From Nitrospirae bacterium CG2_30_70_394 (GTDB taxonomy: Bacteria > CG2-30-53-67 > CG2-30-70-394), in contig MNYW01000083.1 of NCBI GenBank assembly GCA_001873295.1, positions 1 to 47,039 on the forward strand: a stretch of DNA of 47,039 nucleotides, written 5' to 3'. The position numbers and the translations under genes are program-made. This document shows positions 2,733-45,795 of this stretch, piece by piece (the first letter of the stretch is position 1; every line of letters begins with the position of its first letter). The notes below the pieces were generated by a model. The model saw only the letters and a program-made list of their open reading frames with translations, searched no databases and had not been told where the DNA came from.

Positions 2733-4703
2733 ATGAAAGTCGTATACACCGATTCTCTTGTGATCGGGGCCGGCTTGGCCGGCCTCCGTGTCGCTGTCGC
2801 GAGCAAGATGCGTGGGTTGGACACCCTCATTTTGTCGCTCATTCCGGCCAAGCGTTCCCACTCTGCCGCCGCCCAGGGCGGCATGCAGGCGAGCCTCGGG
2901 GCCGCCGCGAAGGGGGAGGGGGACAACGAAGACATCCACTTCGCGGATACCGTCAAGGGCTCCGACTGGGGTTGCGATCAACCGGTCGCGCGGATGTTTA
3001 CCCACGTCGCACCCAAGGCGATCCGCGAGCTCGCGGCTTGGGGGGTGCCGTGGAGTCGTGTGCGCGGCGGTGATCACGAGGTGGTGATCAACGCCCAGCG
3101 GACCATCATCCACGAGAAGGAAGAGGCGCATGGCCTGATCATGGCCCGCGACTTCGGTGGCACGAAGAAGTGGCGCACCTGTTACACCTCTGATGGCGCC
3201 GGCCACACGATGCTCTACGCCATGGACAATAAGGCGATTGAGCTCGGCATTCCGGTCCATGAGCGGATGGAGGCGGTCGCTCTGATTCATGAAGGTGATC
3301 GTTGCCGCGGGGCAGTGGTTCGGGACCTCATCACCGGCGAGTTGATCGCCTACGTGGCGAAGGCGACCACGATCGCCACCGGCGGCTACGGGCGCATCTA
3401 CGGGGTGACCACCAACGCGGTCATCGTCGAGGGCATGGGGGCCGCTATCGCCTTGGAGACAGGCAAGGCGCCGCTGGGAAACATGGAAGCGGTGCAGTTC
3501 CATCCGACCGCGATTGTCCCCGTCGGCATCCTGATGACCGAGGGGTGTCGTGGTGACGGCGGGGTTCTGCGTGACGTCGATGGCTACCGTTTCATGCCCG
3601 ACTACGAGCCGGAAAAGAAGGAGCTTGCCAGCCGCGACGTCGTGTCACGGCGGATGACCGAGCACATGCGCAAGGGCAAGGGTGTTCCGTCACCGTATGG
3701 CGATCACCTGTGGCTCGATATCACGATCCTTGGCAAGGAGCACATCGAGCGCAATCTGCGCGAGGTTACGGAGATCTGCAGAAACTTTCTTGGTGTCGAC
3801 CCGGTCAAGGACTACATTCCGGTGCGGCCGACCCAGCACTATTCCATGGGGGGTGTACGCACCAACTGGACCGGGGAAAGCCCTGGGCTACGAGGGCTCT
3901 TTTCCGTGGGTGAGGCCGCATGCTGGGATCTCCACGGCTTCAATCGTCTGGGCGGCAACTCCGTCGCCGAGACGGTCGTCTCAGGGATGATCGTGGGCGA
4001 ATATGTCGCCGACTATTGTGAGCAGTCGACTTTGGAGATCTCGACCGGTGTGATCGCCGGCTTTATGGAGCGCGAACGGGCGCGCATCGACGCGCTGCTG
4101 GCCCGTCCGAGTGGGGAGAAGGTGTACGAGCTCAGGTCGGCGATGCAGCAGATCATGATGGACAAGGTGGGCATCTTCCGGACGGGAGAGAAGTTGCAGG
4201 AGGCCCTTGATGGGCTGAAGGATCTCTTGCGGCGGAGCAGGAACATTGCCCTGACCAACAAGATCGGATCTTCCAATCCCGAGCTTGTGGATGCACTGCG
4301 GCTCCAGCGCCAGCTCAAGCTGGCGGTTACGGTGACCAAAGGCGCGCTGCTGCGCACCGAGAGCCGCGGTGCCCACACCCGCGAGGACTATCCAGAACGT
4401 AACGATCGGGACTGGCTCAAGCGCACTTTGGCGTACTGGAAGAATGAGGCAGACGAGGAGCCGACGATCGAGTACGAAGATCTCGACATTTCAAAGATGG
4501 AGCTTCCACCCGGCTTCCGTGGTTACGGAACGGACAACACGATCCATCACCCGAACACGGCGGGGCGAGTCCAACAAGCCGCCGAGATCGTGCAGTCAAT
4601 GCCGGGTGCCGATCGCTTCCAAGTTCAAAACGCGCTGATGCCGTTCGACCTTCCTGCCAAGTACAAAGAGAAGAACGAGCGCATAGGGGTGGGCTGCAAA
4701 TGA
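2733..4703 (+). CDS. frdA: Fumarate reductase / succinate dehydrogenase flavoprotein subunit
   Basis: This 656-residue catalytic subunit has the length of Wolinella FrdA. It interconverts fumarate and succinate on the cytoplasmic side. An N-terminal FAD-binding segment ([10 protein letters not shown]) is followed by the covalent-FAD histidine in SHSAAAQGG (His43). The dicarboxylate site includes His257 (FHPTA), Arg301 (SRDVV), His369 ([10 protein letters not shown]) and Arg405 (HGFNRLGG); the first four sit at the same numbers as in Wolinella. The ATG lies 5 bp after the frdC stop and the 3' end overlaps frdB by 4 bp (ATGA), so the three genes are one translational unit. Confidence 0.95.
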
Positions 4704-5467
4704 GCAATCACGTGAATACTCCGACGGCACACGGAAACGACAAGGGCCGGAAACTTCGGTTCCACATCTTCCGTTACAACCCGCAACTGCCTGGCGACAA
4801 GCCACGCATGCAGACCTTCGAGATCGAAGAGCAACCGGGGATGACGATCTTTGTCGCGCTCAACGAGATCCGTGAGCGCCAAGATTCTTCGTTGCAGTTC
4901 GACTTCGTGTGTCGTGCTGGTATCTGCGGCTCTTGCGGCGTGGTGATCAACGGCCGGCCTGACCTCGCGTGTCACACCCTGACCGCGAAGTTTAGCGGCG
5001 GAGAGATCACCCTCCTTCCCCTTCCCGCCTTCGAACTGATCGGTGACCTGTCGGTCAACACGGGCAAGTTCATGCGCTCCATGAGTGAGCGGATTGAAAG
5101 CTGGATCCATAGCGAGGAGGCGAAGCACTGCGACTTCAATGTCCTCGAAGAGCGCATGGATCCGGACCTCGCGGACAAGATCTACGAGTTGGATCGCTGC
5201 ATCGAGTGCGGCTGCTGTATCTCCGCCTGTGGCACCAAGCGCATGCGCGAGGACTTTCTCGGCGCCGTTGGCTTTATGCACGTGGCGCGTTTTCATCTTG
5301 ATACTCGAGACCAGCGAACCGACGACGACTGGTACGAGATCATCGGCGACGATGACGGCATCTTCGGCTGCATGAGCCTGATGGGCTGTGAGGACAACTG
5401 CCCGAAGGATCTTCCGCACCAGGCCCAGATCGCCTTCCTGCGCCGCAAGATGGTGATGGTCCGCTAG
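4700..5467 (+). CDS. frdB: Fumarate reductase iron-sulfur subunit
   Basis: A 255-residue electron-transfer subunit linking the FrdC hemes to the FrdA flavin. A [2Fe-2S] ferredoxin domain has Cys71, 76, 79 (CRAGICGSC) and Cys91. The C-terminal domain has Cys167, 170, 173 and 177 ([11 protein letters not shown]), then Cys224, 230 and 234 ([13 protein letters not shown]), which fits one [4Fe-4S] and one [3Fe-4S] cluster. All expected ligands are present. The start codon overlaps the frdA stop (ATGA). A strong hairpin 5 bp after the stop probably ends the frdCAB transcript. Confidence 0.95.
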
Positions 5468-19750: not shown

Positions 19751-21604
19751 GTGGCACCGGCCTACAACCAGAGAAAGTTCGACCTGAAGATCGTCGACCA
19801 GGAGTACCTGTTCGGGAACTTCTCCTGCGCCGCCGGCTGTCCGGTCTACACCCACGCCGGCGAGTACGTGCAGGCGATCGCCGAGGGCGATTTCGAGCGC
19901 GCCTACGCGGTGGCGCGCGGCCCCAACGTCTTCGCCTCGGTGTGCGGCCGCACCTGCTCCCATCCGTGTGAGCAGCAGTGTCGCAAGGGGGTGGTGGCAA
20001 AGCGGCCGATCTCGATTCGGGCGCTGAAGCGATATGTGACGGAGAAGTACGGGGTGGAGATCACCCGCAACCTGCAAAAGAGCCTCTCGTTTTCCACCGC
20101 CCCGGGCTCCACCCACCCCACCCCCAACGGCCACAAGGTGGCGATGGTCGGTGCCGGTCCAGCGGGCATCTCGTGCGCCCACGACCTCGCCCGCCTCGGC
20201 TACGAATGCCACGTCTACGAGCGGCTCGAGGTCCCCGGCGGGATGCTCTACGTCGGGATTCCCGAGTACCGCCTGCCGCGCGAGCTGATCAAGAACGAGG
20301 TGGCGGCGGTGGAGCTGCTCGGGGTACAGATCCACTACGGCCAGGAGTGCGGCAAAGACTTCACCGTCCAGTCGCTCTTTGACGACGGCTGCGAGGCGGT
20401 CTTCCTTGGCATCGGCGCCCACCTCGGCCGCGGCTTGCCGATCCCCGGCAAGGAGCTTCAGGGGATCCACGTCGCCGTTCCCTTCCTGCGCGACGCGGCC
20501 CTCTACCGGCCGATCGCGGAGCTGGGCGAGCGGGTGTTGATCATCGGCGGCGGCAACGTCGCGATGGACGTGGCGCGCACCACCATCCGGGTGAAGCCGG
20601 AGGTGAAGGAGGTGCGGATCACCTGTTTGGAAAGCCGCGACAAGATGCTCGCCTTCCCCTGGGAGCTGGAGGAGGCCATGGAGGAGGGGGCGACCCTCGA
20701 CGCCGGTTGGGGGCCCCTGGAGTTTGTCGGCGAGAAGGGCCGGCTCACCGGCGTGCGGATGAAGCAGATCGCCTCGATCTTCGACGCCGCGGGCAAGTTC
20801 AACCCAGAGTACGTGGAGGGGAGCGAGACGATCTTCGCCTGCGATACCTGCGTGCTGGCCATCGGCCAGGGGATCGACACCACCTTTCTGACCGCGGCGG
20901 ATGGGGTAAAGGTGGGGCCACGCGGCAACATCGAGACCAATCCACAGACGATGCAGACCTCCAACCCGCGCGTCTTCTGCGGCGGCGACGCGGCCTTCGG
21001 GCCTAGGCTGGTGATCGATGCGGTGGCCGAGGGGAGCCGGGCGGCGCGCGGCATCGACGAGCTGATCCAGGGGCGGTCGCGGATCATCAAGCTGTGGTCC
21101 TCCACCGAGGTCCCCAACTTCCACGTCAGCCCGCTGATCGACCTTGACGCCAAGCGGCCCGAGGTCTTTGCGATGGCGGCGGACTACGACTACCGCCCGC
21201 GCATCGAGCCGCTCACGATCTCCTTCGACGATCGTCACAACTGGAAAGAGGTGGAGCAGGTCTACTCGCAGGCGGATGCGCGCGCCGAGGGCAACCGCTG
21301 CCTGCGCTGCAACTTCAACACCGTCTTCTCGTCGGCCACCTGCATCCTGTGCGGCGGCTGTATCGACGTCTGCCCGGAAAACTGTCTGTCGATCATCGAC
21401 GTCGCGCAGATCCACGCCGCCACCGGGTCCGCCATGGAGCAACTCTTGGCGGCGCGCTACGCGGGTGAGGCGGCGCCGAACGGCGCGGCCATCATCAAGG
21501 ACGACGCCCGGTGCGTGCGCTGCGACCTCTGTGTCCGGCGCTGCCCCACGGACGCGATCACCATGGAGCGGTACGAGGAAAGGGAGGTGGCTCTCGATGT
21601 CTGA
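19751..21604 (+). CDS. GltD-like FAD/NAD(P)H oxidoreductase with ferredoxin domains
   Basis: A 617-residue cytoplasmic iron-sulfur flavoprotein. The N-terminal Fe-S domain has Cys26, 30, 65, 69, 73 and 77 (CAAGCP; VCGRTCSHPCEQQC), as in the small subunit of glutamate synthase. FAD binding is at about 133-139 (VGAGPAGIS) and the NAD(P) site at 265-271 (IGGGNVAMD). After CLRC (517-520), the C-terminus has two [4Fe-4S] sets: CILCGGCIDVCP (531-542) and CVRCDLCVRRCP (588-599). There is no membrane segment. It starts with GTG after AGGTAGGGGGAG. It is the first gene of the bc operon and overlaps the Rieske gene by 8 bp, so it probably delivers or takes electrons between NAD(P)H or ferredoxin and that complex. 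A lone GltD-like enzyme is the alternative. Confidence 0.88.
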   Translation: MAPAYNQRKFDLKIVDQEYLFGNFSCAAGCPVYTHAGEYVQAIAEGDFERAYAVARGPNVFASVCGRTCSHPCEQQCRKGVVAKRPISIRALKRYVTEKYGVEITRNLQKSLSFSTAPGSTHPTPNGHKVAMVGAGPAGISCAHDLARLGYECHVYERLEVPGGMLYVGIPEYRLPRELIKNEVAAVELLGVQIHYGQECGKDFTVQSLFDDGCEAVFLGIGAHLGRGLPIPGKELQGIHVAVPFLRDAALYRPIAELGERVLIIGGGNVAMDVARTTIRVKPEVKEVRITCLESRDKMLAFPWELEEAMEEGATLDAGWGPLEFVGEKGRLTGVRMKQIASIFDAAGKFNPEYVEGSETIFACDTCVLAIGQGIDTTFLTAADGVKVGPRGNIETNPQTMQTSNPRVFCGGDAAFGPRLVIDAVAEGSRAARGIDELIQGRSRIIKLWSSTEVPNFHVSPLIDLDAKRPEVFAMAADYDYRPRIEPLTISFDDRHNWKEVEQVYSQADARAEGNRCLRCNFNTVFSSATCILCGGCIDVCPENCLSIIDVAQIHAATGSAMEQLLAARYAGEAAPNGAAIIKDDARCVRCDLCVRRCPTDAITMERYEEREVALDV

Positions 21605-22097
21605 TCCCACTGTCGAGCCGGAGTTCAGCTACGACCAGTTTTCCCGCCGGGACTTCTTCACCTTGGTGGGCGGGGTCGCCATGGCCGGCACCTTCGGCGC
21701 CGCCTTGGTGGCGTCGTTCCGCTACATGTGGCCGAACGTCCTCTACGAGCCGCCCACCCGCTACAAGATTGGCCCCCCGGCCGAGTACCCGGTGGGGGTC
21801 AACTTCGTCGCCGACCAGCGGATCTTCGTGGTCCGCGGGGTCTACGGCCTGCAGGAGAACGAGTACCGGGTGGTGTCGGCGATCTGCACCCACATGGGGT
21901 GCACCCCGAAGTGGGTGCAGGCGAACGAGCGCTGGGAGTGCCCGTGCCATGGCAGTCAGTTCAACACCCTCGGGGTGAAGGTGGCCGGGCCGGCGCCGCG
22001 GCCGCTGCCGTGGTACGAGGTGAGCATGGGCAACGACGGCCGCTTGCTGGTGGACCAAAACAAGGTGGTCGCCGCCGACTTCAAGCTGAGTGTGTGA
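21597..22097 (+). CDS. Rieske iron-sulfur protein, Tat-exported
   Basis: A 166-residue subunit of a cytochrome bc-type complex. A twin-arginine signal (SRRDFF, residues 16-21) is followed by a membrane helix (about 22-41). The [2Fe-2S] ligands are Cys97/His99 (CTHMGC) and Cys115/His118 (CPCHGS), with Cys102 and Cys117 for the disulfide. It accepts electrons from quinol at the periplasmic face. The ATG lies inside the 3' end of the preceding oxidoreductase gene, so the two are translationally coupled. Confidence 0.95.
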   Translation: MSDPTVEPEFSYDQFSRRDFFTLVGGVAMAGTFGAALVASFRYMWPNVLYEPPTRYKIGPPAEYPVGVNFVADQRIFVVRGVYGLQENEYRVVSAICTHMGCTPKWVQANERWECPCHGSQFNTLGVKVAGPAPRPLPWYEVSMGNDGRLLVDQNKVVAADFKLSV

Positions 22098-22149
22098 CGG
22101 CCTGGACCCGCGGGCGGGGGGAGCGCCACCGAGGAGTGAGGAGGAAGAG

Positions 22150-22899
22150 ATGAGCCGCGTCGCCGATGTCCTGTTCGCCAACCGGGTGTGGAAGTCCGTC
22201 TTCCGCCACGGCTATCCAAGCAACCCGCGCAACCGTGCGGAGGTGATGTTTCAAAACGTCTTCCTCCACATCCAGTCGGTGAAGGTCTTCAAGCGGAGCC
22301 TGCAGGTGAGCGCCACCTTTGGCCTCGGGTTGACCCTCGCCTACCTCTTCCTCCTCCTCACCCTCAGCGGCTTTTTGCTGATGTTCTACTACGTCCCGGA
22401 GGTGCACCGCGCCTACGCGGACATGAAGGACCTGGAGTTTGCGGTGAGCTTCGGGGTGGTGCTTCGGAACATGCACCGGTGGGGTGCCCACGCGATGGTT
22501 GCCTTCACCTTCTTGCACATGGCGCGGATCTTTTACACCGGCGCGTACAAGGCACCGCGGGAGTTCAACTGGCTGATTGGCATCCTGTTGCTGGTCATCA
22601 CCCTCTTCCTCTCCCTCTCCGGCTACCTCCTGCCGTGGGACCAGCTCGCCTACTGGGCAATCACCATCGTGTCCAACCTGATCCGCACGACGCCGCCGGC
22701 CGACATCGTCGGCGCCGGCGCCAGCTATTTCGTCCTCGGGGGCACCCAGATCGGGCAGAACACCCTGATCCGGTTCTACGTGATGCACGTCTTTGGCCTG
22801 CCCGCCATCGCCGGAATCTTGATGGTGGTGCACTTCTGGCGGATCCGGAAGGACGGCGGTCTGGCGCGTCCGGACGAGAGCAACATCCCCTTGCGCTAG
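22150..22899 (+). CDS. Cytochrome b6-like subunit of a split cytochrome b
   Basis: A 249-residue membrane protein with four helices carrying two b hemes. Likely ligands are His109/His123 (13 residues between) and His213/His228 (14 between); the 14-residue second spacing is that of b6-type proteins. SGYLLPWDQLAYWA is the quinol-site region. The protein has no cysteine at all, so the covalent heme ci of cytochrome b6f is absent. The ATG follows GAGGAAGAG. The N-terminus is extended by about 45 residues before the first helix. Confidence 0.94.
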   Translation: MSRVADVLFANRVWKSVFRHGYPSNPRNRAEVMFQNVFLHIQSVKVFKRSLQVSATFGLGLTLAYLFLLLTLSGFLLMFYYVPEVHRAYADMKDLEFAVSFGVVLRNMHRWGAHAMVAFTFLHMARIFYTGAYKAPREFNWLIGILLLVITLFLSLSGYLLPWDQLAYWAITIVSNLIRTTPPADIVGAGASYFVLGGTQIGQNTLIRFYVMHVFGLPAIAGILMVVHFWRIRKDGGLARPDESNIPLR

Positions 22900-22954
22900 C
22901 ACCGGGCCGGGCGGTCTTGGCGAGTTGCGCAGGCGGGACTCGAGGGAGGCAGCG

Positions 22955-23476
22955 ATGGCAGCGAAGCCGATGGACAACATGAAGTCGTACGGTCTGATGA
23001 ACCTGGTGCAGGGGAAGAGCCCGGCGATCCAGAAGGACCCGTACGACATGGTGATGAGTTGGCCCCACCTTCTCTTCCGCGAGGTGGTCCTTTTCCTCAT
23101 TGTCCTAACGATCATCATGGGGATGTCGATCCTGTTCAACGCGCCCCTGGAGGAGATGGCGGACCCGAAGAACACCCCCAACCCGGCCAAGGCGCCGTGG
23201 TACTTCCTCGGCTTACAAGAGGCGCTCTCCTGGGGTCCGCCGGTCCTCGGTGGGATCGTCTTCCCGACGGTCCTTGCCGGCTTGCTCATTGCCGTGCCGT
23301 ACCTCGATCGGTCGCGCGACGGCATCGGCGTCTGGTTTCACCCCAAGCGGCGGACCATCAACATCCTCTTTACCGTGGGGATGGTCCTGTGGTTTGGCCT
23401 GATCGTCGTGGGGACCTTCCTGCGTGGCCCCAGTTGGGAGTTCTTCTGGTTCTGGGAGCCGTGGCCCATCCACTGA
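22955..23476 (+). CDS. Subunit IV-like C-terminal part of split cytochrome b
   Basis: A 173-residue protein with three membrane helices that completes the cytochrome b. The quinol-oxidation loop reads KAPWYFLGLQEAL (residues 79-91): the Glu of the usual PEWY motif is replaced, giving APWY, as seen in several bc complexes of anaerobes. The C-terminus (FLRGPSWEFFWFWEPW) is typical of menaquinol-type complexes. The ATG at 22955 follows GGGAGGCAGC; an in-frame ATG 30 bp upstream lacks homology. It lies 55 bp after the b6 gene. Confidence 0.92.
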   Translation: MAAKPMDNMKSYGLMNLVQGKSPAIQKDPYDMVMSWPHLLFREVVLFLIVLTIIMGMSILFNAPLEEMADPKNTPNPAKAPWYFLGLQEALSWGPPVLGGIVFPTVLAGLLIAVPYLDRSRDGIGVWFHPKRRTINILFTVGMVLWFGLIVVGTFLRGPSWEFFWFWEPWPIH

Positions 23477-23544
23477 ACCGGGCGGGCGGGGCCGTTGTGT
23501 GAACAGCGAGGCCGGGGCGTGACCGCGGCCATCGGGAGAGGCGG

Positions 23545-25860
23545 ATGAGCACGAGCGTGGGCATCGTCATTGCGGTTCTGGTCCTGGCGGCGATCGCCGT
23601 CTTGCTGAAGATGAAGGCGTGGCGCCCCCTCTTCTTTGTCTTGGGGCTGGTGGTCTTCGGTCTCTTCTGGGGCCAGGTGGTGAAAGACCAGATTCACCCG
23701 TACGACGCTTACCAGCAGGAGTACCGGCAGCGGCTCGTGGAGCTCGCTGGCGGCGACCCGGCCAAGGTCGACTTCAAGCCCGGGATCGTTCAGCGCTACA
23801 TCCCGGCACTCAACCGCAGCGACCGGTGTGAGACCTGCCACCTCGCTGTCGACAACCCGCGCTTCAAGGACGCGAAGCAGCCCTTCACCACCCACCCAAA
23901 TATCTCGACCCATCCGCCGGACCGGTTCGGATGCACCGTTTGCCACGAGGGCGTCGGGATCTCCGTCGACCTCCGCGGCGCCCATGGCCACCAGGAGAAC
24001 TGGCGCAACCCGGTTCTCGACAAGCGGCTCGTCCAGTCGCGTTGCGTCCAGTGTCACGAGCGCGGTGCGGCGCTCACCGGCTCCAGCCTCTACGCCCAGG
24101 GGGAGATCCTGTTCAACCGGGTTGGCTGCCTTGGCTGTCACCCGGTGAAGGGGCAAGAGCTGGAACGGCTGCCCGGGCCCGACCTGAGGATCCTCCCCAA
24201 CAAAATGCAGCTCGACTGGCTGGCCGGCTGGCTCAAGGATCCGAACAGCTACCTCAAGAAGAGCTACATGCCGAACTTCGAGCTGAGCGACGACGACGTG
24301 AAGGCGATCACCTCCTACCTCGTTGCCTCCGCCCGTGGCTACCTGGCCGACCAGGGCGTGCCGAGTCTCGGCCGCGACGTCCCCACCGATCCCACGAAGG
24401 TGGCCGAGGGTAAGCAGCTCGTTCTGTCGGTCGGCTGCTTGGGCTGTCACAACATCGACGACGCTGTCCTGGTGGACGAGGCCGGTCTCGACCCGACGGT
24501 GCGCGAACGCAACTTCGGCCCTGACCTGGCGCGCACCGGCGACAAGCTCCACGGCCAGTGGATCAAGGAGTGGGTCCTCAACCCGCAGGGGCAGGACCCG
24601 AAGACCACCATGCCCAACATGCGCCTTAGCCCGAAGGAGGCCGAGGCGATCGCCGCCTACTTGCAGCAGAAGGGTGACTCCACGGTGGCGAAGATCGACC
24701 TCGCCGCCGAGCCCGACAACGCCGAGCTGGTGGCGCGGGGCAAACAGCGGATCGAGTGGTTCAACTGCTCCGGTTGCCACCCGATCGCCGGCTTTGAGGG
24801 GCGCGCCTTCTACGGCCCCGAGCTCACCTTCGAGGGCGACCTGGACTACTTCCGCCTCGCCTTCGATTTGAAGAAGGAGGAGATGGTTGAGCGCGACGAG
24901 AAGGAGAAGGTCCAGAGCCACCTCCATGTGGCCAACTTCGTGCGCATGAAGCTGGAAGATGCGCGCCAGTTCCGGCCGGAGCTACTGAAGATGCCCAACT
25001 TCCACTTCTCCCCCCAGGAGGTGGAGGCGCTCACCGTCTACGTCACCTCCCTCAAGGCGCGGGTCTACCCGGCGTCGTTCCACGTCGAGATGGACGACCG
25101 CCGCAAGGCGATCTCCCGTGGCCGCGAGATGTTCGCCCGCTACAACTGCCGCGGTTGCCACGAGCTCGACCCCGCGGCGCCGCGCTCCTCCGGCCACCTG
25201 CGCGCCTATTACGCGGGTGAGGCCAAGGCCCTGGCGCCGCCGGTCCTCCACGGTGAGGGACGCAAGGTCCAGCCCCTGTGGGTCCAGGGCTTCATGCAGC
25301 GCCCGATCACCCTGCGGCCGTGGCTGGCCGTGCGCATGCCCACCTTCGGCCTCAGCGATGGCGAGGCGGAGACCCTCTCCGCCTACTTCATCGCCCTGGA
25401 GGAGAGTCAGCACCCGTTTTACGGCGTCGATTCCGGCAACCTCGACCCGGTCTCCGTGGCCGAAGGCAAAGAGCTCTTGATGCGCTTCAAGTGCCTCAAG
25501 TGCCACGTCCTCGGTGCGGAGATCCCGAAGGACAAGGCACCCAACGAGCTCGCCCCCAATCTGGAGCTCACCAAGAGCCGCCTGCGTCCGGCATGGATCG
25601 ACGAGTGGCTCACCGATCCCCAGGGGTTCCAGGCGGGGACCCGCATGCCCAACTTCTTCTTCTTCGACGAGATCGAGGACGAAAACGGCGAGGCGGTCCT
25701 CGACGCCGCCGGCAACCCGAAGCTCGACTACACGAACGACACGGCCAAGGACAACCTCGCCCAGATCCACAAGATGCGCGACTACCTCATGACCCTCGAC
25801 GCCGCCGAGGCGCGCCAGATGTGGTCGCGCCTTGGAAGCGGCGGTGACGCGGCGCAATGA
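23545..25860 (+). CDS. Membrane-anchored octaheme cytochrome c
   Basis: A 771-residue protein with eight CxxCH sites: RCETCH, GCTVCH, RCVQCH, GCLGCH, GCLGCH, NCSGCH, NCRGCH and KCLKCH. Each later site is followed by a mono-heme cytochrome c fold with a distal Met in motifs such as MPNF and MPTF. Two hydrophobic helices at about 4-22 and 28-46, with a positive KMKAW loop between them, predict that the hemes face the periplasm with no cleaved signal. It follows subunit IV by 68 bp and probably replaces cytochrome c1/f as an electron-wire subunit. The ATG follows GGGAGAGGCGG. Confidence 0.9.
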   Translation: MSTSVGIVIAVLVLAAIAVLLKMKAWRPLFFVLGLVVFGLFWGQVVKDQIHPYDAYQQEYRQRLVELAGGDPAKVDFKPGIVQRYIPALNRSDRCETCHLAVDNPRFKDAKQPFTTHPNISTHPPDRFGCTVCHEGVGISVDLRGAHGHQENWRNPVLDKRLVQSRCVQCHERGAALTGSSLYAQGEILFNRVGCLGCHPVKGQELERLPGPDLRILPNKMQLDWLAGWLKDPNSYLKKSYMPNFELSDDDVKAITSYLVASARGYLADQGVPSLGRDVPTDPTKVAEGKQLVLSVGCLGCHNIDDAVLVDEAGLDPTVRERNFGPDLARTGDKLHGQWIKEWVLNPQGQDPKTTMPNMRLSPKEAEAIAAYLQQKGDSTVAKIDLAAEPDNAELVARGKQRIEWFNCSGCHPIAGFEGRAFYGPELTFEGDLDYFRLAFDLKKEEMVERDEKEKVQSHLHVANFVRMKLEDARQFRPELLKMPNFHFSPQEVEALTVYVTSLKARVYPASFHVEMDDRRKAISRGREMFARYNCRGCHELDPAAPRSSGHLRAYYAGEAKALAPPVLHGEGRKVQPLWVQGFMQRPITLRPWLAVRMPTFGLSDGEAETLSAYFIALEESQHPFYGVDSGNLDPVSVAEGKELLMRFKCLKCHVLGAEIPKDKAPNELAPNLELTKSRLRPAWIDEWLTDPQGFQAGTRMPNFFFFDEIEDENGEAVLDAAGNPKLDYTNDTAKDNLAQIHKMRDYLMTLDAAEARQMWSRLGSGGDAAQ

Positions 25861-25965
25861 AGTCCGCTTGTCTAGCCGCGTCGATCCATCAACCGTGATC
25901 TGTCCGCACCCTGACCACCATTCGTCGCGACATCGTGTCGCGGCGTGACCCCAGGAGGAGTAGCC

Positions 25966-26664
25966 ATGAGTAGACACCCTGTCCTTTCCACCACCGCCAC
26001 CCTCGCCATGGCCCTCGGCCTCGCCGCCTCGCCGGCGAGCGGAGGCGACCTCAGCGGCAAGATCACCTACAAGGGCACCCCGCCCGCGGCGTCCATGCTG
26101 GACACCAAGTCCGACCCGGTCTGCCTCAAGGCCCACGGCACCATCCCCTCGGAAGAGGTGGTGGTGGGCGCGGGTGGCGGCCTGCAGAACGTCTTCATCT
26201 ACGTGAAGGAGGGGCTGGCGGGACAGAAGTTCGAGCCCACCGCAAACGCGGCGACCCTCGACCAGCAGGGGTGCCAGTACCGGCCCCACGTCCTCGGGGT
26301 GATGGCCGGGCAGAAGATCGACATCCTCAACAGCGACGAAACCCTGCACAACGTCCACCCGGTCCCCAAGGACAACCGCGAGTGGAACCTCGCCATGCCC
26401 TTCAAGGGGCAGAAGGTGACCAAGAAGTTTTCCAAACCGGAGATTGGCATCCACGTCACCTGCAACGTCCACGGCTGGATGAGCAACTACATCTGCGTGG
26501 TCGACAACCCCTTCTTCGCGGTCTCTGGAAACGACGGCACCTTCACCATCGCCGGCCTCCCGGATGGTGACTACACCCTCGCCGCCTGGCACGAGAAGTT
26601 TGGCGAAAAGACCGCCAAGGTCACCGTCAAGGGCGCCACCGCCACCACGTTCAGCTTCGAGTAG
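25966..26664 (+). CDS. Periplasmic cupredoxin-like protein with an amicyanin-type short loop
   Basis: A 232-residue exported protein (signal peptide about 1-26). A cupredoxin domain supplies candidate type 1 copper ligands His128 (ETLHNVHP; His131 possible) and Cys166, His169 and Met172 in TCNVHGWM. The C-x2-H-x2-M loop has the short spacing of amicyanin. A C-terminal carboxypeptidase-regulatory-like beta domain (FTIAGLPDGDYTLAAWHEKFG) follows. The family is often annotated as methylamine utilization protein or plastocyanin-like. The ATG follows AGGAGGAG. It lies 105 bp after the octaheme gene and before a terminator, so it may be the soluble or surface electron acceptor of the complex. Confidence 0.85.
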   Translation: MSRHPVLSTTATLAMALGLAASPASGGDLSGKITYKGTPPAASMLDTKSDPVCLKAHGTIPSEEVVVGAGGGLQNVFIYVKEGLAGQKFEPTANAATLDQQGCQYRPHVLGVMAGQKIDILNSDETLHNVHPVPKDNREWNLAMPFKGQKVTKKFSKPEIGIHVTCNVHGWMSNYICVVDNPFFAVSGNDGTFTIAGLPDGDYTLAAWHEKFGEKTAKVTVKGATATTFSFE

Positions 26665-26695: not shown

Positions 26696-26729
26696 AGCCC
26701 CCCGGACTCCCTGAGCCCGGGGGGCTTTT
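26696..26729 (+). terminator. Rho-independent terminator closing the respiratory operon
   Basis: Arms AGCCCCCCGG and CCGGGGGGCT form a 10-bp stem extended by CTC/GAG across one mismatch, followed by TTTTG. It lies 32 bp after the cupredoxin stop and also separates it from the convergent helicase gene. Confidence 0.9.
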
Positions 26730-26816
26730 GTTGTGGCTCGTGCCCGCGGAGAGATCCACCCCACGACGCCGGCGCGGTTGTCCCTTTTGCCTTCGCGGGA
26801 GGCTGGGTCTTGTGGG

Positions 26817-30815: not shown

Positions 30816-33800
30816 TTAGGCGCTCACCGGCCCCTCTTCGGGCGGGGTCTCGGGCGGCGGTGCGGCGGCCTGCTGTTCGCGTCGCAGCCGCGCCTTCTGC
30901 TTCGCCTCCTTGAAGGTCCGCTTCTTCTCCCGTACCTCCTGGTGCTGGAGGTGGTTGAAGAGGTAGATCGGGACCATCACCAGGGAGAGCAAAGTGGAGG
31001 CGCCGGTCCCCCAGATCAGGGAGGTGGCGAGGCCGTTGAAGATCGGGTCGAGGAGGATGACGAAGGCGCCGACGAAGACCGCCGCGGCGGTGAGGAAGAT
31101 CGGCATGGTCCGCAGGGCGCCGGCCTCGATGCAGGCGTCGCGCATCGACATCCCCTCCTCACGGCGCTCCATGGCGAACTGCACCACCAAAATCGAGTTG
31201 CGGACGATGATCCCGGCCAGGGCGATCATCCCCATCATCGAGGTGGCGGTGAACCAGGTTCCGGTGAGCCAGTGGCCGGGCATGATCCCCACCAGGGTGA
31301 AGGCGATCGGCGACATGATGACGCCGGGCACGGAGAAGGAGCGGAACCAGCCCACCAGCAGGACCCACATGACGAGTAGGGCAATGCCGAAGGCGCCACC
31401 CATGTCGCGGAAGGTCTCGACGGTGGTGTGCCACTCGCCGTCCCACTTCACCACCACATCCTTCTCCGTCTTCGGCTGGAGGAAGAGGTGCTGCTTGATC
31501 GGCCGCCCCGCTGGGGTGGTGATCTCCTGAATCGGACCCCACATGTTGATGAGGGCGTAGACCGGCGAGGCGTTGCGGCCGGCGACGTCGCCGGTGACGT
31601 AGATCACCCGTTGGAGGTTCTCGTGGTAGATCGACTTCTCCTCCACGGAGCGCTCCACCTTGACCAGCTCGGCGAGGGAGATCACCCGACCCGACGGCGT
31701 CGGCAGGCGGATCTCCTTCAGGGCCTCCACGGAGTTGCGCCGCGCCACCGGGAAGCGCAGGTGGATGGGGACCGGGGCGAGCTCGCCGCTGAGGCGCAGG
31801 TGGGAGATGTCCATCCCCGCCATCGCCATGCGCAGGGTCTTCACCACCATCTCTTTGGAGAGCCCCACCTGGTTCACCTTCTCGTCGTCAACGACGAGCG
31901 TGTCTTTTGCCTGGTCGTCCTCGTAGTACCAGTCCACGTCCACCACGTCCTGGGTGTGGTCGAAGACCTCGTGGACCTGCTTGGCCACCGCCACCTGGGA
32001 CTCACGGTCGCCGCCGTAGATTTGGCAGACGAGGGTGGAGAGGTTGGGCGGGCCGGGGGGCGGCTCGAGCACCTTGATCCGCGCCCCATACTTGTCGGCG
32101 ATCGCGTGCAGGGCTGGCCGGACACGGGTGGCGATGTCGTGGTTCTGCTCGGTGCGGAACCGCTTGTCGACGATGTTCACCTGGATTTCGGCGACGTTGG
32201 ACCCCTCGCGCATGAAATAGTGGCGTACCAGGCCGTTGAAGTTGAAGGGCGAGGCGGTGCCGGCATAGATCTGGTAGTCGGAGACCTCGTTTACCGTGCG
32301 CAGGTAGTCGCCGAGCTCCATGGCGACCCGCGTGGTGTCTTCGAGGGTGGTCCCCTCGGGGGTGTCGATGACGACGCTGAACTCGCTCTTGTTGTCATAC
32401 GGCAACAGCTTGACGAGCACCATCTTGGTCCCCACCAACCCCATTGCCGCCATCATCATCACCATCACCGTGAGATAGCAGATCCACTGTAAGCCGCGGT
32501 GGTCGAGGATCGCCCCCATGGTCCGCTGGTAGAAGTGGTAGTAGGCGGTCTGCTTGGCGTAGTCGGCGTGCGACTCCTCTACATCGGTGCGCCGCCGGGT
32601 GGTGATCGGTTCGGGCTCGTAGTGTTTGAGGAACTTGTTGGCGCACCACGGCGTCACCATCAGGGCAACTGCCAGGGACATGAGCATGGCGGCGGAGGCG
32701 TTCACCGGCATGGGGCGCATGTAGGGCCCCATGAGGCCGCCCACCACCGCCATCGGCATGAGGGTGACGATGACCGTGAAGGTGGCAAGGATCACCGGCG
32801 GCCGCACCTCGTTCACCGCGTAGATGATCGCCTGGATCGGCGGCAGCCTGCGCATAGAGAAGTGGCGGTGGATGTTCTCCACGTCGACGATCGGGTCATC
32901 TACCAAGATGCCGATCGACATGATCAGGGCGAACAGGGTCACCCGGTTCAGGGTGTAGCCGATGGACCAGCTCCAGAAGAGGGTGATCGACAGCACCACC
33001 GGCACTGCGATGAGCACCACCAGCGCGTCGCGCCAGCTCAGAAAGACGCCCACCAGGAGGATGACCGAGACGGTGGCGATCCCGAGGTGGAAGAGGAGCT
33101 CATCCGCCTTGTGGCCAGCGGTGAAGCCGTAGTTTCGGGTGAAGGTGTAGTGGACGTCCTCGGGGATGAGCTGGGAGCGGATCTGTGCCAGCTTCTGCTC
33201 CACCGCCGCGGCGGCGTTCACCGAATTCGTCCCCTTCTTCTTGGCGACCGTGATCGTCACCCCGGGGATGGTGTGGCCGTGTGCATCCGCGGGCCATTCG
33301 ATCGTCTTGCCCAGGGCCTCTTCCTCGGCCTGGTATTGGGGACCGACGCCGAACAGGACGTAGTTGTCGACCTCCCCTGGACCGTCCTCAATCTCGGCCA
33401 CGTCGCGCAGATAGACCGGCCTGCCCTGGAAGGTCCCCACCACCAGGTTGCCCACCTCGCGGGCGTTCTGCAGGAAGGTACCCGCGTCCACCAGCAACTC
33501 CTGGTCGTTCACCTGGAACTTGCCCGCCGGCATCGACCAGTTCGCCGCCTGAACCACCTGCGCGATCTGCGGCGGCGAGGTCATGTGGGCCGCCATCTTC
33601 TGGGAATCGAGGATGACGCGGAGGGTGCGCGGCCGGCCGCCGATGATGTCGACCTCCGCGGCGTCGGGGATCTGGGCGAGCTGGTCGGCGATCGGCTGGG
33701 CCATGCGCCGCAGGTCGTAGTCGCCGTAGTTTTCGCTGTACAGGGTGACCGCGACCTGTGGGACGTCGTTGATGTCCCGCAGCTTGATCATCACCTGCAC

Positions 33801-34232
33801 CATCGGGCTGCCCGGGGCGAAGCTGACTCCGCCGCCCGGCGCCTTGTCGATGTTGTTGAAGATCTTGTCGTAGAGCTGAACGAGGGAGCGCTGCTGGTCG
33901 GAGTTGACGTAGAAGCGCGCGGTAACCACACCATAGTTGGCGTGGCTCATGGAATAGACGTACTCCACCGGGAAGTCGTCGATTCCCCAAATCAGCCGTT
34001 CGAGCGGCTTGACGACCTGGGACTCCACCTCCTCGGCGGAGGCACCTGGTACCGCGACGATGATGTCCACCATCGGCACCACAATCTGCGGATCCTCCTC
34101 GCTCGGGGTCACGAGGACCGCGAAGAGGCCGAGGATCAGGGCGGTGCCGATGAATAGCGGCGTCAGCTTGCTGGTCGTGAAATAGCCGACCAGCTTGCCG
34201 AGGAAGGTCTCGTCGGTCGTGTAGTGGGCCAT
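30816..34232 (-). CDS. RND efflux pump inner-membrane transporter, AcrB/HAE-like
   Basis: A 1138-residue proton-driven transporter with 12 predicted membrane helices and two large periplasmic loops. The helix 4 relay is SIGILVDDPIVDVENI, with the paired Asp of the family. The helix 10 position that is Lys940 in AcrB appears as Arg in GIIVRNSILVVQF. Extra length (about 90 residues over AcrB) includes a lysine/arginine- and proline-rich C-terminal tail. The substrate cannot be read from the sequence; drugs, lipids and metals are all possible. It overlaps no neighbour but starts 3 bp after the adaptor stop. No TolC-type gene is adjacent. Confidence 0.9.
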   Translation of the reverse strand: MAHYTTDETFLGKLVGYFTTSKLTPLFIGTALILGLFAVLVTPSEEDPQIVVPMVDIIVAVPGASAEEVESQVVKPLERLIWGIDDFPVEYVYSMSHANYGVVTARFYVNSDQQRSLVQLYDKIFNNIDKAPGGGVSFAPGSPMVQVMIKLRDINDVPQVAVTLYSENYGDYDLRRMAQPIADQLAQIPDAAEVDIIGGRPRTLRVILDSQKMAAHMTSPPQIAQVVQAANWSMPAGKFQVNDQELLVDAGTFLQNAREVGNLVVGTFQGRPVYLRDVAEIEDGPGEVDNYVLFGVGPQYQAEEEALGKTIEWPADAHGHTIPGVTITVAKKKGTNSVNAAAAVEQKLAQIRSQLIPEDVHYTFTRNYGFTAGHKADELLFHLGIATVSVILLVGVFLSWRDALVVLIAVPVVLSITLFWSWSIGYTLNRVTLFALIMSIGILVDDPIVDVENIHRHFSMRRLPPIQAIIYAVNEVRPPVILATFTVIVTLMPMAVVGGLMGPYMRPMPVNASAAMLMSLAVALMVTPWCANKFLKHYEPEPITTRRRTDVEESHADYAKQTAYYHFYQRTMGAILDHRGLQWICYLTVMVMMMAAMGLVGTKMVLVKLLPYDNKSEFSVVIDTPEGTTLEDTTRVAMELGDYLRTVNEVSDYQIYAGTASPFNFNGLVRHYFMREGSNVAEIQVNIVDKRFRTEQNHDIATRVRPALHAIADKYGARIKVLEPPPGPPNLSTLVCQIYGGDRESQVAVAKQVHEVFDHTQDVVDVDWYYEDDQAKDTLVVDDEKVNQVGLSKEMVVKTLRMAMAGMDISHLRLSGELAPVPIHLRFPVARRNSVEALKEIRLPTPSGRVISLAELVKVERSVEEKSIYHENLQRVIYVTGDVAGRNASPVYALINMWGPIQEITTPAGRPIKQHLFLQPKTEKDVVVKWDGEWHTTVETFRDMGGAFGIALLVMWVLLVGWFRSFSVPGVIMSPIAFTLVGIMPGHWLTGTWFTATSMMGMIALAGIIVRNSILVVQFAMERREEGMSMRDACIEAGALRTMPIFLTAAAVFVGAFVILLDPIFNGLATSLIWGTGASTLLSLVMVPIYLFNHLQHQEVREKKRTFKEAKQKARLRREQQAAAPPPETPPEEGPVSA

Positions 34233-34235
34233 GAC

Positions 34236-35420
34236 CTACATCGCCTCCATGATCGGGCTGCCGTCTTCCACCTCGTTCAGCTTGTTGAGGACGATGCGTT
34301 CCCCTGCCTTGAGGCCGGCGATGATCTCGACCTGCGAGTCGCTACTGCGGCCGAGGCGGACGAAGCGGAGGTGCGCCTTGTTGTCAGCCCCCACCACGAA
34401 GACGCTGGTGAACTGGTACCACCGCTTCACCGCGTCGCTTGGGATGTAGATCGACTCCGCCCCTTGGCCCACCGCGAAGGTGGCGCGACCAAACATGCCC
34501 GCCTTCACCACCGTGGTCTCGGGGAGGTTGACCCGCACCATGTAGGTGCGGCTCATGGGATCCACCGACGGGATAACCTCGCTCACCGCCAGTTGGCTTG
34601 CCAGGCCGGCAGACTCGATCTCGACGTTCACCGCCTGTCCCTGGACCACCTGCGCCCCCTCGTCCACCGGCACCGTCAGGCGATAGGTGCGCGCCTCAAT
34701 GGTGAACAGCGGGTGGCCGGGGGCGGCGAGGTCACCCACGTCCGCCATCTTCTGGGTGACCCGGCCGTCGAAGGGGGCCTTGACCACCGTGTAGTCCTGG
34801 TAGATCTCAGCGGACTTGAGCCCCGCCTCCGCCTGGCTCTTCTGCGCTTCGAGGGCCGCGATCTGCGCCTCCGCCTGGGCAACCATCGCCTGGGCGCCGG
34901 CATAGGCAGCGTTCACATCGTCGAGCTCCTTCTTCGCAAAGGAACCCTCGCCGTAGAGCTGGTTGAACCGCTCGTGGTGGGCGGTAGCCGCGATGAGCTG
35001 CGCCTCGGCCGCCCGCTTCGCCGCCCGGGCCACCTCGATTCCCTTGGAGGCCGCGTGTACCCCGGCGTTGGCCTGGGCAACCTTGGCGCTCACCTCGCCA
35101 TCGTCGAGGACGCACAAGACCTGGTGGTGGCTCACGTCGTCGCCCTCCCGGACCTTGATCTCCTTGATCTTGGCCATGATCTGCGGCGCTACCTGCGCCA
35201 CCTCGTGCGACTCGACGGTACCCATCACGGTCACCGTGCGTGAGGGCGCGGACTGCTGCACCGTGCCCACCTTCACGTCGGTCACCGTCATGGCGGCGTC
35301 GGGCGTCTCTCCCGCCTCGACCTTGTCAGGACCAATGATCGGTAGGTTGCCCTGATCCCACCCGATCATCAGGTAGCAGGGGAAAACGAGGAGAAGGAAA
35401 AACTTGAGCCAGAAGCGCAT
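34236..35420 (-). CDS. RND periplasmic adaptor (membrane fusion protein)
   Basis: A 394-residue adaptor anchored by one N-terminal membrane helix (about 4-20; no lipobox Cys context). Domain order: barrel-sandwich half (APQIMAKIKEIKVREGDDV), an alpha hairpin of about 90 residues rich in Ala, Glu and Gln, the second lipoyl half (TVVKAPFDGRVTQKMADVGD), a beta barrel and the membrane-proximal domain. It would link the transporter to an outer membrane channel. The ATG at 35420 follows GGGAGGGGCC. It is the first gene of the two-gene pump operon. Confidence 0.9.
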   Translation of the reverse strand: MRFWLKFFLLLVFPCYLMIGWDQGNLPIIGPDKVEAGETPDAAMTVTDVKVGTVQQSAPSRTVTVMGTVESHEVAQVAPQIMAKIKEIKVREGDDVSHHQVLCVLDDGEVSAKVAQANAGVHAASKGIEVARAAKRAAEAQLIAATAHHERFNQLYGEGSFAKKELDDVNAAYAGAQAMVAQAEAQIAALEAQKSQAEAGLKSAEIYQDYTVVKAPFDGRVTQKMADVGDLAAPGHPLFTIEARTYRLTVPVDEGAQVVQGQAVNVEIESAGLASQLAVSEVIPSVDPMSRTYMVRVNLPETTVVKAGMFGRATFAVGQGAESIYIPSDAVKRWYQFTSVFVVGADNKAHLRFVRLGRSSDSQVEIIAGLKAGERIVLNKLNEVEDGSPIMEAM

Positions 35421-35691
35421 GGGCCCCTCCCGGAGCTGGGCGGCGTGTCCAGGGAACACGCCGCGGGATACTGGTGACCGCGAAAATTATGAGATGACGG
35501 TTAGGCGGCGAGGAATGGATCGAGTCTGACAATGCACTCTACCGAGATCAAGATGGGAGATCTTCCCCCCGGGCGACTGCGCAACCCGAAGTCTGCCTCG
35601 CAATAGGCATACGAGAGCCCCCTGCTTAAGAATGGTTGCGAACTTTTTTTCCGCCCCCGCCCCAATCGCTACAGGGGCCGGGCTCGGGCGG

Positions 35692-38535: not shown

Positions 38536-38720
38536 CGCGGAGGGGGTGGCGCCGGCGGTGAAGCAACCGGAGAACGGTGCGCGCCGGCGCGAAGGGGCGC
38601 CGCGGGTCGGGGACTTTTCGAGTGCGAGCGTGGGTTGCCAGCGCCGTGGCGGGCGCGGCCGTGCCCAGTGGGGTGGGGTTTGCCACGGTGGGGCTACCAC
38701 GGCGCCGGCGCGGAGCAGCG

Positions 38721-40751
38721 ATGGTCCCCCCCTTCACCAACGACCTGATCCACGAGACCAGCCCATATCTCTTGCAGCACGCCCACCAACCGGTGGCGTG
38801 GCGGCCGTGGGGGGAGGCGGCGTTGGCGGCGGCGCTCCAGCTCGATCGGCCGATCCTGCTATCCATCGGCTACGCCGCTTGCCACTGGTGCCACGTGATG
38901 GCCCACGAGTCGTTCGCGGACGCGGAGACCGCCCGCTTCATGAACGACCACTTCATCTGCATCAAGGTCGATCGCGAGGAGCGGCCCGACCTCGACCAGC
39001 TCTACCAGACCGCGTTGCAGCTCCTCACCGGGCGCGCCGGTGGCTGGCCCCTGACCCTCTTCCTCACCCCCGCTGGCGCGCCGTTTTTCGGCGGCACCTA
39101 TTTTCCGCCCGCCGACCGCCATGGCCTCCCCGCCTTCCGCCGGGTCCTCGCCGGGGTGGCGCGCCACTACCGGGAGCAGCGGGGAGAGGCGGCGGCGGAC
39201 GGCGGCCGGGTGGTGGCGGCGCTGGCGGAGATGGAGGCGGCGAGCCCGCCCGGGAGAGTCGGCGCGCCCCTCGTGGCCGGCGCGGTGGAGGAGATCGCCG
39301 CCCAGGTCGACCCGGTCCACGGCGGCGTCGGCGGCGCCCCCAAGTTTCCCCAGACCGCCTGCCTCACCCTGCTGTTGCGCGCCGGCGGCCGGGCGCGCGC
39401 GCTGGCGCTGCTCACCCTCGACGCGATGGCCGCGGGCGGCATCTACGACCACGTGGGTGGTGGCTTCGCCCGCTACTCGACCGACGAGCTGTGGCTCGTC
39501 CCGCACTTCGAGAAGATGCTCTACGACAACGGCCTACTCGCCGCCCTCTACCTGGAGGCGTACCAGGTGACCGGCAAGCGCGCCTACGCGCGGGTGGTGG
39601 AGGAGACCCTCCGCTATCTCCAGCGCAACCTCTACCGCGACGGCGGCGGCTTCTACGCCAGCCAGGACGCGGACAGCGAGGGGGTGGAGGGGCGGTACTA
39701 CGTCTGGAGCCGCGCTCAGATCGACGCCCTTCTCGGCAGTGAAGCCGAGCTGTTTTGCCGCGCCTACGGGGTGAGCCAGGCGGGCAACTGGGAGGGGCAG
39801 AACATCCTCCATTTGGCCCGTTCGACCGCCGCGCTGGCGGCGGAGACGGGGGTAGCGCCTCCAGCATTGGACGAGCTTTTGGCCCGCGGCCGCGCGCGCT
39901 GCCTCGCCGCCCGCGAACAGCGCCCTGCCCCGTCCACCGACACCAAGGTGATCATGAGTTGGAACGGCATGGCGATCTCCGCCTGCGCCCGCGCCGCCCT
40001 CTGCCTCGATCTCGACTGGGCACTGGCGATGGCCACCGCGAGCGCCGACTTCCTGTGGGAGGCGAGTTGGCGCGCCGGCCGCCTCCACCGCACCTGGACC
40101 GACGGCGCGGCGCGCCACGATGGCGTCCTCGACGACTACGCCTACCTTGGCGCCGCCCTCCTCGACCTCTACGAGGCGACCGGTGAGGGGCGCTTCCTGG
40201 CGCGCGGGGCCACCCTCGGCGAGGCGATCGTCGACCGCTTCTTCGCCGGCGACGGAAGCGGCTTCTACCTCACCGCCGAGGATGACGACCGCCTCATCCA
40301 CCGGCCGCGCGCGCGCCATGACCAGTCGATCCCGTCAGGGGCGGCGGCGGCGTGCGCCCTGCTCCTGCGCCTGGCGGTGTTCACCGACAACGCGCGGCTG
40401 CAAGAGGCGGCAGAGCAGACCCTCGCGCACCACGCCGGCGCCATGGCCGCCCAGCCGGTCGCCTACGCCGGTCTGTTGGCGTGCGTCGAACCCGTCCTCG
40501 ATCCGCCCGTGGAGATCACCCTGGTGGGCGACCCAAGCGCGCGCCGCGCCTGGGTCCGCCGCCTTGCCCAGCTCCACCTCCCGCACCGTGGGGTCTGCCA
40601 CCTGCCGTGCGACCCGCCGGTGGCCGGCGCCATCGCCGCCGGCAAAGAGGCCCAGGGCGGCGGGGTCACTTGCTACCTGTGTCGCCACACTACCTGCACC
40701 CCGCCGATGCGCCGCTGGGAGGAGCTGGAGCGGGCGCTGGCGGGTGGCTGA
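38721..40751 (+). CDS. DUF255 / YyaL-type thioredoxin-domain protein
   Basis: A 676-residue protein of the widespread YyaL/SSP411 family. An N-terminal thioredoxin-like domain starts [19 protein letters not shown] and has a CHWCH motif (Cys54, Cys57). The rest is a six-hairpin glycosidase-like alpha/alpha barrel with GGAPKFPQ and [14 protein letters not shown] motifs. The family function is not established; sugar epimerase or redox roles have been proposed. The ATG at 38721 matches the family start, although the open frame extends 48 codons upstream. Base composition is like its neighbours. Confidence 0.88.
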
Positions 40752-45722: not shown

Positions 45723-45795
45723 GAATCGAAACTCGCGGACATGCCAGCGATGTGGTGCGCGCCCACCCTCGCGGAGGTCGGCCATGGTGGGTGAG
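45688..45795. repeat. Direct repeat pair, 36 bp each with a 36-bp spacer, duplicating the subunit I 3' end
   Basis: Exact copies lie at 45688-45723 and 45760-45795 (CGCCCACCCTCGCGG start, GGTGGGTGAG end). Each copy contains the last codons and stop of the subunit I gene (TLAEVGHGG then TGA). The 72-bp period keeps frame. CCCACC and GGTGGG within the repeat are inverted. Confidence 0.85.

What the first reader, a model, noticed from the sequence alone, without database searches (positions are those of the whole stretch)
19751..26664. bc-type complex with its own NAD(P)H/ferredoxin flavoprotein, octaheme wire and cupredoxin
Seen: a GltD-like FAD protein with an N-terminal Fe-S domain and two C-terminal [4Fe-4S] sets starts the operon and overlaps the Rieske gene by 8 bp. 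Split cytochrome b, an eight-heme cytochrome c and a cupredoxin follow, with a terminator at the end. Known: bc complexes oxidise quinol and pass electrons to high-potential acceptors; I recall comparable extra subunits around anammox and other anaerobe bc complexes. Inference: the flavoprotein may dock on the cytoplasmic side, so the complex could couple quinol oxidation to NAD(P) or ferredoxin chemistry (bifurcation or reverse electron flow).
Basis: partly seen in the sequence, partly recalled or inferred. Interest (0 to 1): 0.78.

Follow-up and report, generated by a model that had tools for sequence, protein, structure and literature searches.

The report
Quinol complex with built-in NAD flavoprotein
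This bacterium's only cytochrome bc-type respiratory complex is encoded together with an NAD-type flavoprotein, an eight-haem cytochrome and a blue-copper protein; the same gene set occurs in at least 15 phyla, so an unproven energy-coupling idea proposed for anammox bacteria could now be tested in culturable ones.

Summary
Six genes (19751-26664, +) encode a FAD/Fe-S protein, Rieske protein, cytochrome b6, subunit IV, octahaem cytochrome c and a type-1 copper protein, followed by a strong terminator. The unit is not unique. In a genome scan that kept the 80 best flavoprotein matches, about 70 had bc genes alongside, nearly all in the same order, over at least 15 named phyla, including cultured Geothrix and Anaeromyxobacter. 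The kind is published: two Kuenenia (anammox) Rieske/cytochrome b complexes carry an NAD(P) oxidoreductase and are proposed to make NAD(P)H by splitting quinol electrons (Hauser 2025, after Kartal 2013). The window belongs to a different subtype. Its flavoproteins form their own clade, apart from the Brocadia one, and carry 'CLE' instead of 'YRR', which in DsrL marks NAD(H). Linked b6 proteins usually lack the haem-cN cysteine (kept in 6/100, versus 25/33 unlinked relatives; confounded by ancestry). The histidine proposed to bind a new interface haem is invariant, but also in flavoprotein-free relatives, so it is not specific. Best reading: one quinol electron goes through octahaem c and copper protein towards cbb3 oxidases, the other through b haems and Fe-S clusters to NAD+. 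Partnership is well supported; direction of flow is not shown.

The parts
19751..21604 (+). FAD/Fe-S pyridine-nucleotide oxidoreductase (617 aa, no TM, no signal): Fer4_20 + Pyr_redox_2 + C-terminal 2x[4Fe-4S]
20027..20029 (+). K93 codon: Lys at the position of the fourth (Glu) ligand of the FAD-proximal Fe-S cluster in NfnB; Lys in 81/82 linked homologues
   Evidence: NfnB ligand set from PMC7596348; Kuenenia model with buried Lys from PMC12954380; position match is inference from alignment
20630..20632 (+). E294 codon in 'CLE', replacing the NADP-binding 'YRR' motif; predicts NAD(H)
   Evidence: DsrL precedent PMC7596348
21597..22097 (+). Rieske [2Fe-2S] protein with Tat-like SRRDFF anchor; CTHMGC...CPCHGSQF
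22150..22899 (+). cytochrome b6 (249 aa, contains no cysteine); four bP/bN ligand His 109, 123, 213, 228
22267..22269 (+). H40 codon: equivalent of the proposed interface-haem ligand (Kuste4571 His43 / Kustd1481 His62)
22321..22323 (+). G58 codon where b6f cytochrome b6 has the haem-cN cysteine (Cys35)
22955..23476 (+). subunit IV (173 aa, three predicted TM helices), Qp-site motif APWYFLGLQE in place of PEWY
23545..25860 (+). membrane-anchored octahaem cytochrome c (771 aa, 8 CXXCH)
25966..26664 (+). secreted type-1 copper protein (cupredoxin + C-terminal CarboxypepD_reg-like domain), Cu ligands H128, C166, H169, M172
26696..26733 (+). intrinsic terminator ending the operon

Best explanation
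The operon encodes a b6f-type quinol-oxidising complex with a dedicated cytoplasmic NAD(H) flavoprotein. Quinol is oxidised at the periplasmic (Qp) site. One electron goes to the Rieske protein, then along the octahaem cytochrome c to the copper protein and on to a high-potential oxidase (the genome has cbb3 oxidases and an NO reductase). The other electron goes through haems bP and bN, possibly a haem at the b6 dimer interface held by H40, into the flavoprotein's Fe-S clusters and FAD, and reduces NAD+. Shown: gene content, conservation, co-inheritance, cofactor-binding residues, NAD-type signature. Inferred: physical docking, the interface haem, and the direction of electron flow.
For: Conserved FAD-Rieske-b6-IV-c order across at least 15 named phyla. 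One supported flavoprotein clade made almost only of bc-linked proteins (98% SH-aLRT). Flavoprotein and b6 distances correlate (Mantel r 0.82, none of 500 permutations above 0.11). No TM segment in the flavoprotein and a Tat-type Rieske anchor place them on opposite sides of the membrane. Equivalents of the Kuenenia proposed haem-b ligands are present with exact spacing in the Brocadia homologue (His to Arg/Lys 204/205 residues) and align with window H40, R233, K234. All four b-haem ligands are present. 'CLE'-type Glu replaces 'YRR' in 95 of 97 FAD-upstream complexes, NAD(H)-type by DsrL precedent (PMC7596348). High measured potentials of Kuenenia Rieske proteins (+303 and +335 mV, the latter with the same Ser/Phe pair as here) fit NAD(P)+ reduction (PMC12954380). 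It is the only b6-like protein found in this genome, which has cbb3-type oxidases and norBC.
Against: No biochemical proof of NAD(P)+ reduction by any such complex. H40 is also invariant in 33 of 33 close relatives without an adjacent flavoprotein gene, so it is not evidence of flavoprotein wiring. The haem-cN loss is confounded with phylogeny: only 2 independent starred contrasts, not significant. The genome also has NuoF-type subunits and no RuBisCO, so a need for extra NADH is not obvious. The opposite direction is thermodynamically easier unless coupled to a strong oxidant.
Confidence: 0.5

Rival explanations
1. Reverse direction: the flavoprotein takes electrons from NADH and injects them on the cytoplasmic side of cytochrome b6, reducing quinone there, like a non-pumping NADH entry point or the proposed FNR/ferredoxin route into b6f in cyclic electron flow.
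For: Flavoproteins of this family work in both directions (DsrL kinetics, PMC7596348). NADH to quinone is downhill. The organism has oxidases to use the quinol.
Against: It would waste energy next to a complex I (argued for Kuenenia in PMC12954380; NuoF genes here). It does not explain why a high-potential octahaem and copper exit is kept in the same operon. Haem cN, the usual candidate entry point, is missing here.
Confidence: 0.25
2. An ordinary Q-cycle complex with a loosely associated regulatory or redox-sensing flavoprotein that is co-expressed but does not exchange electrons with cytochrome b.
For: No docking measured. bc1 complexes work without haem cN. H40 is shared by flavoprotein-free relatives.
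Against: Gene order held over at least 15 phyla, a dedicated clade, and an Fe-S relay of four clusters conserved in nearly all. In Kuenenia all subunits of Kuste4569-4574 co-migrate (PMC12954380).
Confidence: 0.15
3. Electrons are exchanged with ferredoxin rather than, or as well as, NAD at the C-terminal ferredoxin-like domain, or the flavin itself bifurcates as in Nfn.
For: Closest solved structures are Nfn/Stn bifurcating subunits, and the C-terminal 2x[4Fe-4S] domain could be a ferredoxin docking module.
Against: Nucleotide-binding domain is complete with an NAD-type signature. No Nfn small-subunit partner gene in the operon. The proximal cluster has Lys in place of the Glu ligand of NfnB.
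Confidence: 0.1

Closest known systems
Kuenenia stuttgartiensis Rieske/cytochrome b complexes Kuste4569-4574 and Kustd1480-1485 (Kartal 2013; Hauser 2025, PMC12954380)
   Same: Rieske, b6-like cytochrome b, subunit IV, hexa/octahaem cytochrome c and a FAD/Fe-S NAD(P) oxidoreductase; proposed interface-haem His and Arg; Ser with Phe beside the Rieske cluster as in Kustd1480; proximal cluster with three Cys and a Lys
   Different: Gene order differs (flavoprotein first here); subunit IV has three predicted TM helices, five in Kuenenia models; no haem-cN cysteine, haem cN modelled in Kuenenia; NAD-type 'CLE' signature, while the Brocadia homologue with Kuenenia-like order has 'YRR'; a copper protein instead of an HAO-like octahaem enzyme
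Cyanobacterial/chloroplast cytochrome b6f complex
   Same: Split b6 plus subunit IV, b6f-type Rieske, four b-haem ligands
   Different: No cytochrome f, no haem-cN cysteine, APWY for PEWY, octahaem c and flavoprotein added
DsrL NAD(P)H:acceptor oxidoreductase (PMC7596348)
   Same: Same architecture: N-terminal Fe-S domain, GltD/Nfn-like FAD and NAD domains, C-terminal two [4Fe-4S]
   Different: DsrL partners DsrAB sulfite reductase; here the partner genes are Rieske/b6
NfnABC / StnABC bifurcating transhydrogenases (PDB 9bov, 8oh5)
   Same: Best sequence and fold matches, sequence match over residues about 6-526
   Different: No Nfn/Stn partner subunits; membrane quinol complex instead
Nitrospina gracilis b6f-like complex with octahaem c (PMC3578206)
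   Same: Split cytochrome b, b6f-type Fe-S subunit and octahaem cytochrome c; also noted in Kuenenia and Methylomirabilis
   Different: No flavoprotein reported with it in the passage read

Membership tests
Flavoprotein-linked Rieske/cytochrome b complexes (Kuenenia type) | NAD(P) oxidoreductase gene next to Rieske and b6-type cytochrome b | tested here: met
Flavoprotein-linked Rieske/cytochrome b complexes (Kuenenia type) | hexa/octahaem cytochrome c instead of cytochrome c1 or f | tested here: met
   (8 CXXCH)
Flavoprotein-linked Rieske/cytochrome b complexes (Kuenenia type) | proposed interface-haem His and nearby Arg/Lys in cytochrome b | tested here: met
   but shared with flavoprotein-free relatives
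Flavoprotein-linked Rieske/cytochrome b complexes (Kuenenia type) | haem cN in cytochrome b | tested here: not met
   window b6 has no cysteine; G58 at the Cys35 position
Flavoprotein-linked Rieske/cytochrome b complexes (Kuenenia type) | five-helix subunit IV | tested here: not met
   173 aa, three hydrophobic segments
Flavoprotein-linked Rieske/cytochrome b complexes (Kuenenia type) | flavoprotein physically part of the complex; NAD(P)+ reduction by quinol | not testable with these tools
   co-migration reported only for Kuenenia (PMC12954380, citing de Almeida 2016); NAD(P)+ reduction shown for none
Glutamate synthase small subunit (GltD) | scores above curated GltD/GltA cut-offs | tested here: not met
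   TIGR01316 281 of 471.75, TIGR01317 199 of 447.7, TIGR01318 230 of 482.95
Glutamate synthase small subunit (GltD) | linked to a glutamate synthase large subunit gene | tested here: not met
   operon contains none; homologues sit next to bc genes
DsrL | linked to dsrAB | tested here: not met
   no dsr gene in the operon
NCBIfam PRK12771 (NF009410) | score above curated cut-off | tested here: not met
   391 of 516 bits
Cytochrome b6f complex | split b6/IV, Rieske, cytochrome f, haem cN cysteine | tested here: not met
   split b and Rieske present, but no cytochrome f and no haem-cN Cys
Type-1 copper proteins (cupredoxins) | His-Cys-His-Met ligand set in a cupredoxin fold | tested here: met

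The most novel reading that the evidence does not exclude
A widespread, previously uncatalogued class of respiratory complex III (at least 15 phyla, probable aerobes included) makes NADH directly from quinol by sending the low-potential electron of the quinol bifurcation out of the membrane to a dedicated NAD flavoprotein instead of back to quinone. Its flavoprotein was recruited separately from that of the Brocadia-type anammox version, and it usually has no haem cN.
Probability: 0.35. Interest if true: 0.88.

Novelty: new variant of a known kind. Interest (0 to 1): 0.62.

Why it matters
Whether a bc-type complex can drive NAD(P)+ reduction by quinol electron bifurcation has been an open proposal resting on slow-growing anammox bacteria and AlphaFold models. 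This window and its relatives show the arrangement is common, including in cultured organisms (Geothrix campi, Anaeromyxobacter sp. PSR-1), where a gene removal or purification is far easier. If the proposal holds, it changes how reverse electron transport and energy budgets are modelled in many soil, sediment and aquifer bacteria. The NAD-type signature, the missing haem cN, and the presence of the proposed interface-haem histidine in flavoprotein-free relatives are concrete constraints on the mechanism.

Tried and rejected
H40 as a flavoprotein-specific haem ligand: rejected as specific, because all 33 flavoprotein-free relatives have it. Haem-cN loss as adaptation to the flavoprotein: strong in raw counts (6/100 vs 25/33), but independent contrasts are too few. 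Gene fusions joining flavoprotein to Rieske or b6 as direct proof of contact: none seen; only b6-IV fusions. Identity as a glutamate synthase subunit: rejected. Sequence match of the copper protein to PDB: none meaningful; settled by fold search instead. The flavoprotein model from a 12-row alignment was only moderate (pLDDT 69), so cluster geometry was not read from it. Searching the phylum of a named locus failed. Key papers ten Brink 2013 and Dibrova 2013 are not in the library, so earlier notice of the wider distribution cannot be excluded.
Full report
What is there. Six genes run in one direction from 19751 to 26664. The first is a 617-residue soluble FAD protein whose stop overlaps the Rieske start by 8 bp. 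Then come cytochrome b6 (22150), subunit IV (22955), an octahaem cytochrome c (23545) and a secreted copper protein (ATG 25966), followed by a strong terminator. Pfam gives Fer4_20, Pyr_redox_2 and a C-terminal dicluster domain for the first protein, Rieske, Cytochrome_B and Cytochrom_B_C for the next three, and cytochrome c domains for the fifth. A genome of the same genus has the identical six genes (75-94% identity).

The flavoprotein. It has the Nfn/GltD fold: the best PDB matches by sequence and by model include NfnABC 9bov, StnABC 8oh5 and NfnI 5jca. It fails all curated GltD cut-offs and also the closest model, PRK12771 (391 of 516 bits). Conserved cysteines are enough for four clusters: C30, C69, C73 with K93 nearest the FAD; C26, C77, C517, C520; and two C-terminal [4Fe-4S] sets (the cluster assignment is inference by alignment with NfnB as described in PMC7596348). 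A proximal cluster that lacks its fourth Cys and has a buried Lys close by is what the Kuenenia models show (PMC12954380).

Nucleotide preference. GltD/Nfn-type relatives and DsrL-2 proteins carry YRR after the second strand of the NAD(P) domain. In DsrL, YRR enzymes use NADP(H), and DsrL-1 enzymes without it prefer or require NAD(H) (PMC7596348). Here the motif is CLE, and Glu sits at that place in 95 of 97 FAD-upstream complexes. The two exceptions and the Brocadia-type proteins have Arg or Lys there.

Conservation and ancestry. The genome scan kept 80 loci; about 70 have bc genes beside the flavoprotein, nearly all in the order flavoprotein, Rieske, b6, subunit IV, multihaem c, in at least 15 named phyla, Acidobacteriota most often. 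The sample is the best 80 matches to this flavoprotein, so the fraction is not a population estimate. In the flavoprotein tree (quick search, SH-aLRT only) the linked CLE proteins form one starred clade (70 rows: 66 linked, the other 4 at contig ends or near a Rieske gene). The Brocadia L138 protein and L047 fall outside it. Scalindua L066, also anammox, has the window's type with a copper protein. Flavoprotein and b6 distances correlate (Mantel r 0.82; shared species history contributes).

Cytochrome b6. All four b-haem His are invariant apart from truncated rows. The Kuenenia proposal places an extra haem b between His43 (or His62) of the two b subunits, near Arg247 (or Arg266/Lys267). In the Brocadia homologue the matching residues are 204 and 205 apart, exactly as in the Kuenenia proteins, and they align with window H40, R233 and K234. 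H40 is invariant in all flavoprotein-linked b6 proteins, but equally in 33 of 33 members of the same clade without an adjacent flavoprotein gene. So it belongs to the clade, not to the flavoprotein link. The haem-cN cysteine is kept in 6 of 100 linked and 25 of 33 unlinked b6 proteins (one further linked row, below the score limit, also lacks it); the window's b6 has no cysteine at all. On the b6 tree these traits change 5 and 9 times, with only two well-supported independent contrasts, so the association cannot be separated from descent.

The exit side. The Rieske has the Ser/Phe pair (CHGSQF) described for Kustd1480, measured at +335 mV. Subunit IV has APWYF in place of PEWY, as do 76 of 77 relatives. 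The copper protein has H128, C166, H169, M172 invariant and its model resembles plastocyanin and amicyanin.

Cell context. The genome (2.65 Mb, 94% complete) has this as its only b6-like match at E 1e-8. Four Rieske-domain hits exist; two of the others read as ferredoxin-type proteins and the third, of 118 aa, was not read. Two cbb3-like oxidase genes, norBC-like genes (types judged by eye) and two NuoF matches are present; RuBisCO is not. An aerobic or denitrifying life with this complex as the only quinol:cytochrome c link is therefore likely (inference).

How it most likely works, and what is not shown. The flavoprotein is predicted cytoplasmic and the Rieske periplasmic, so the only plausible electron path between them is through cytochrome b. 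Quinol-driven NAD+ reduction coupled to a high-potential acceptor fits the parts, as proposed by Kartal 2013 and developed in PMC12954380 for anammox. The reverse (NADH feeding quinone) is not excluded. No assay, structure or mutant for this subtype was found in the library searched. Literature searches found the anammox proposal and the Nitrospina octahaem note (PMC3578206), but nothing on the wider flavoprotein-first subtype. Two key older reviews were not available, so priority is uncertain.

Verdict. The partnership is well supported by comparative evidence, and the bifurcation mechanism is plausible but unproven. It is a new, widespread variant of a known kind.

Noticed in passing
L138 (Brocadia), L047, L230, L135: Other arrangements exist: in Brocadia and L047 the flavoprotein lies after b6 or after the c subunit, with YRR and a haem-cN Cys in b6; L230 also has YRR and the Cys; L135 has Rieske-FAD-b6 order with CLE and the Cys. 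This suggests more than one recruitment of a flavoprotein to this complex.
   Followed up: partly
L169-L180, L198-L243: Flavoprotein-free relatives of the same b6 clade mostly keep the haem-cN cysteine and are followed by multihaem cytochromes; their function is unknown.
   Followed up: partly
L062, L063, L066, L068 and other Acidobacteriota/Scalindua loci: The copper-protein gene sits just upstream of the flavoprotein instead of at the operon end, so it travels with the complex but changes place.
   Followed up: partly
window 2733-5467: Succinate dehydrogenase/fumarate reductase flavoprotein and Fe-S subunits.
   Followed up: no
window 43464-46385: V-type ATPase I-subunit-like and c-subunit-like genes.
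   Followed up: no
window 30816-35459 (-): RND-type efflux pump of 1138 aa next to a HlyD-type membrane-fusion protein.
   Followed up: no
window 38577-40751: Thioredox_DsbH (DUF255) domain protein.
   Followed up: no
whole genome G000: The window's class has only a handful of held genomes and the next relatives are listed only as 'same domain', so the host is from a sparsely sampled lineage that could not be named here.
   Followed up: no
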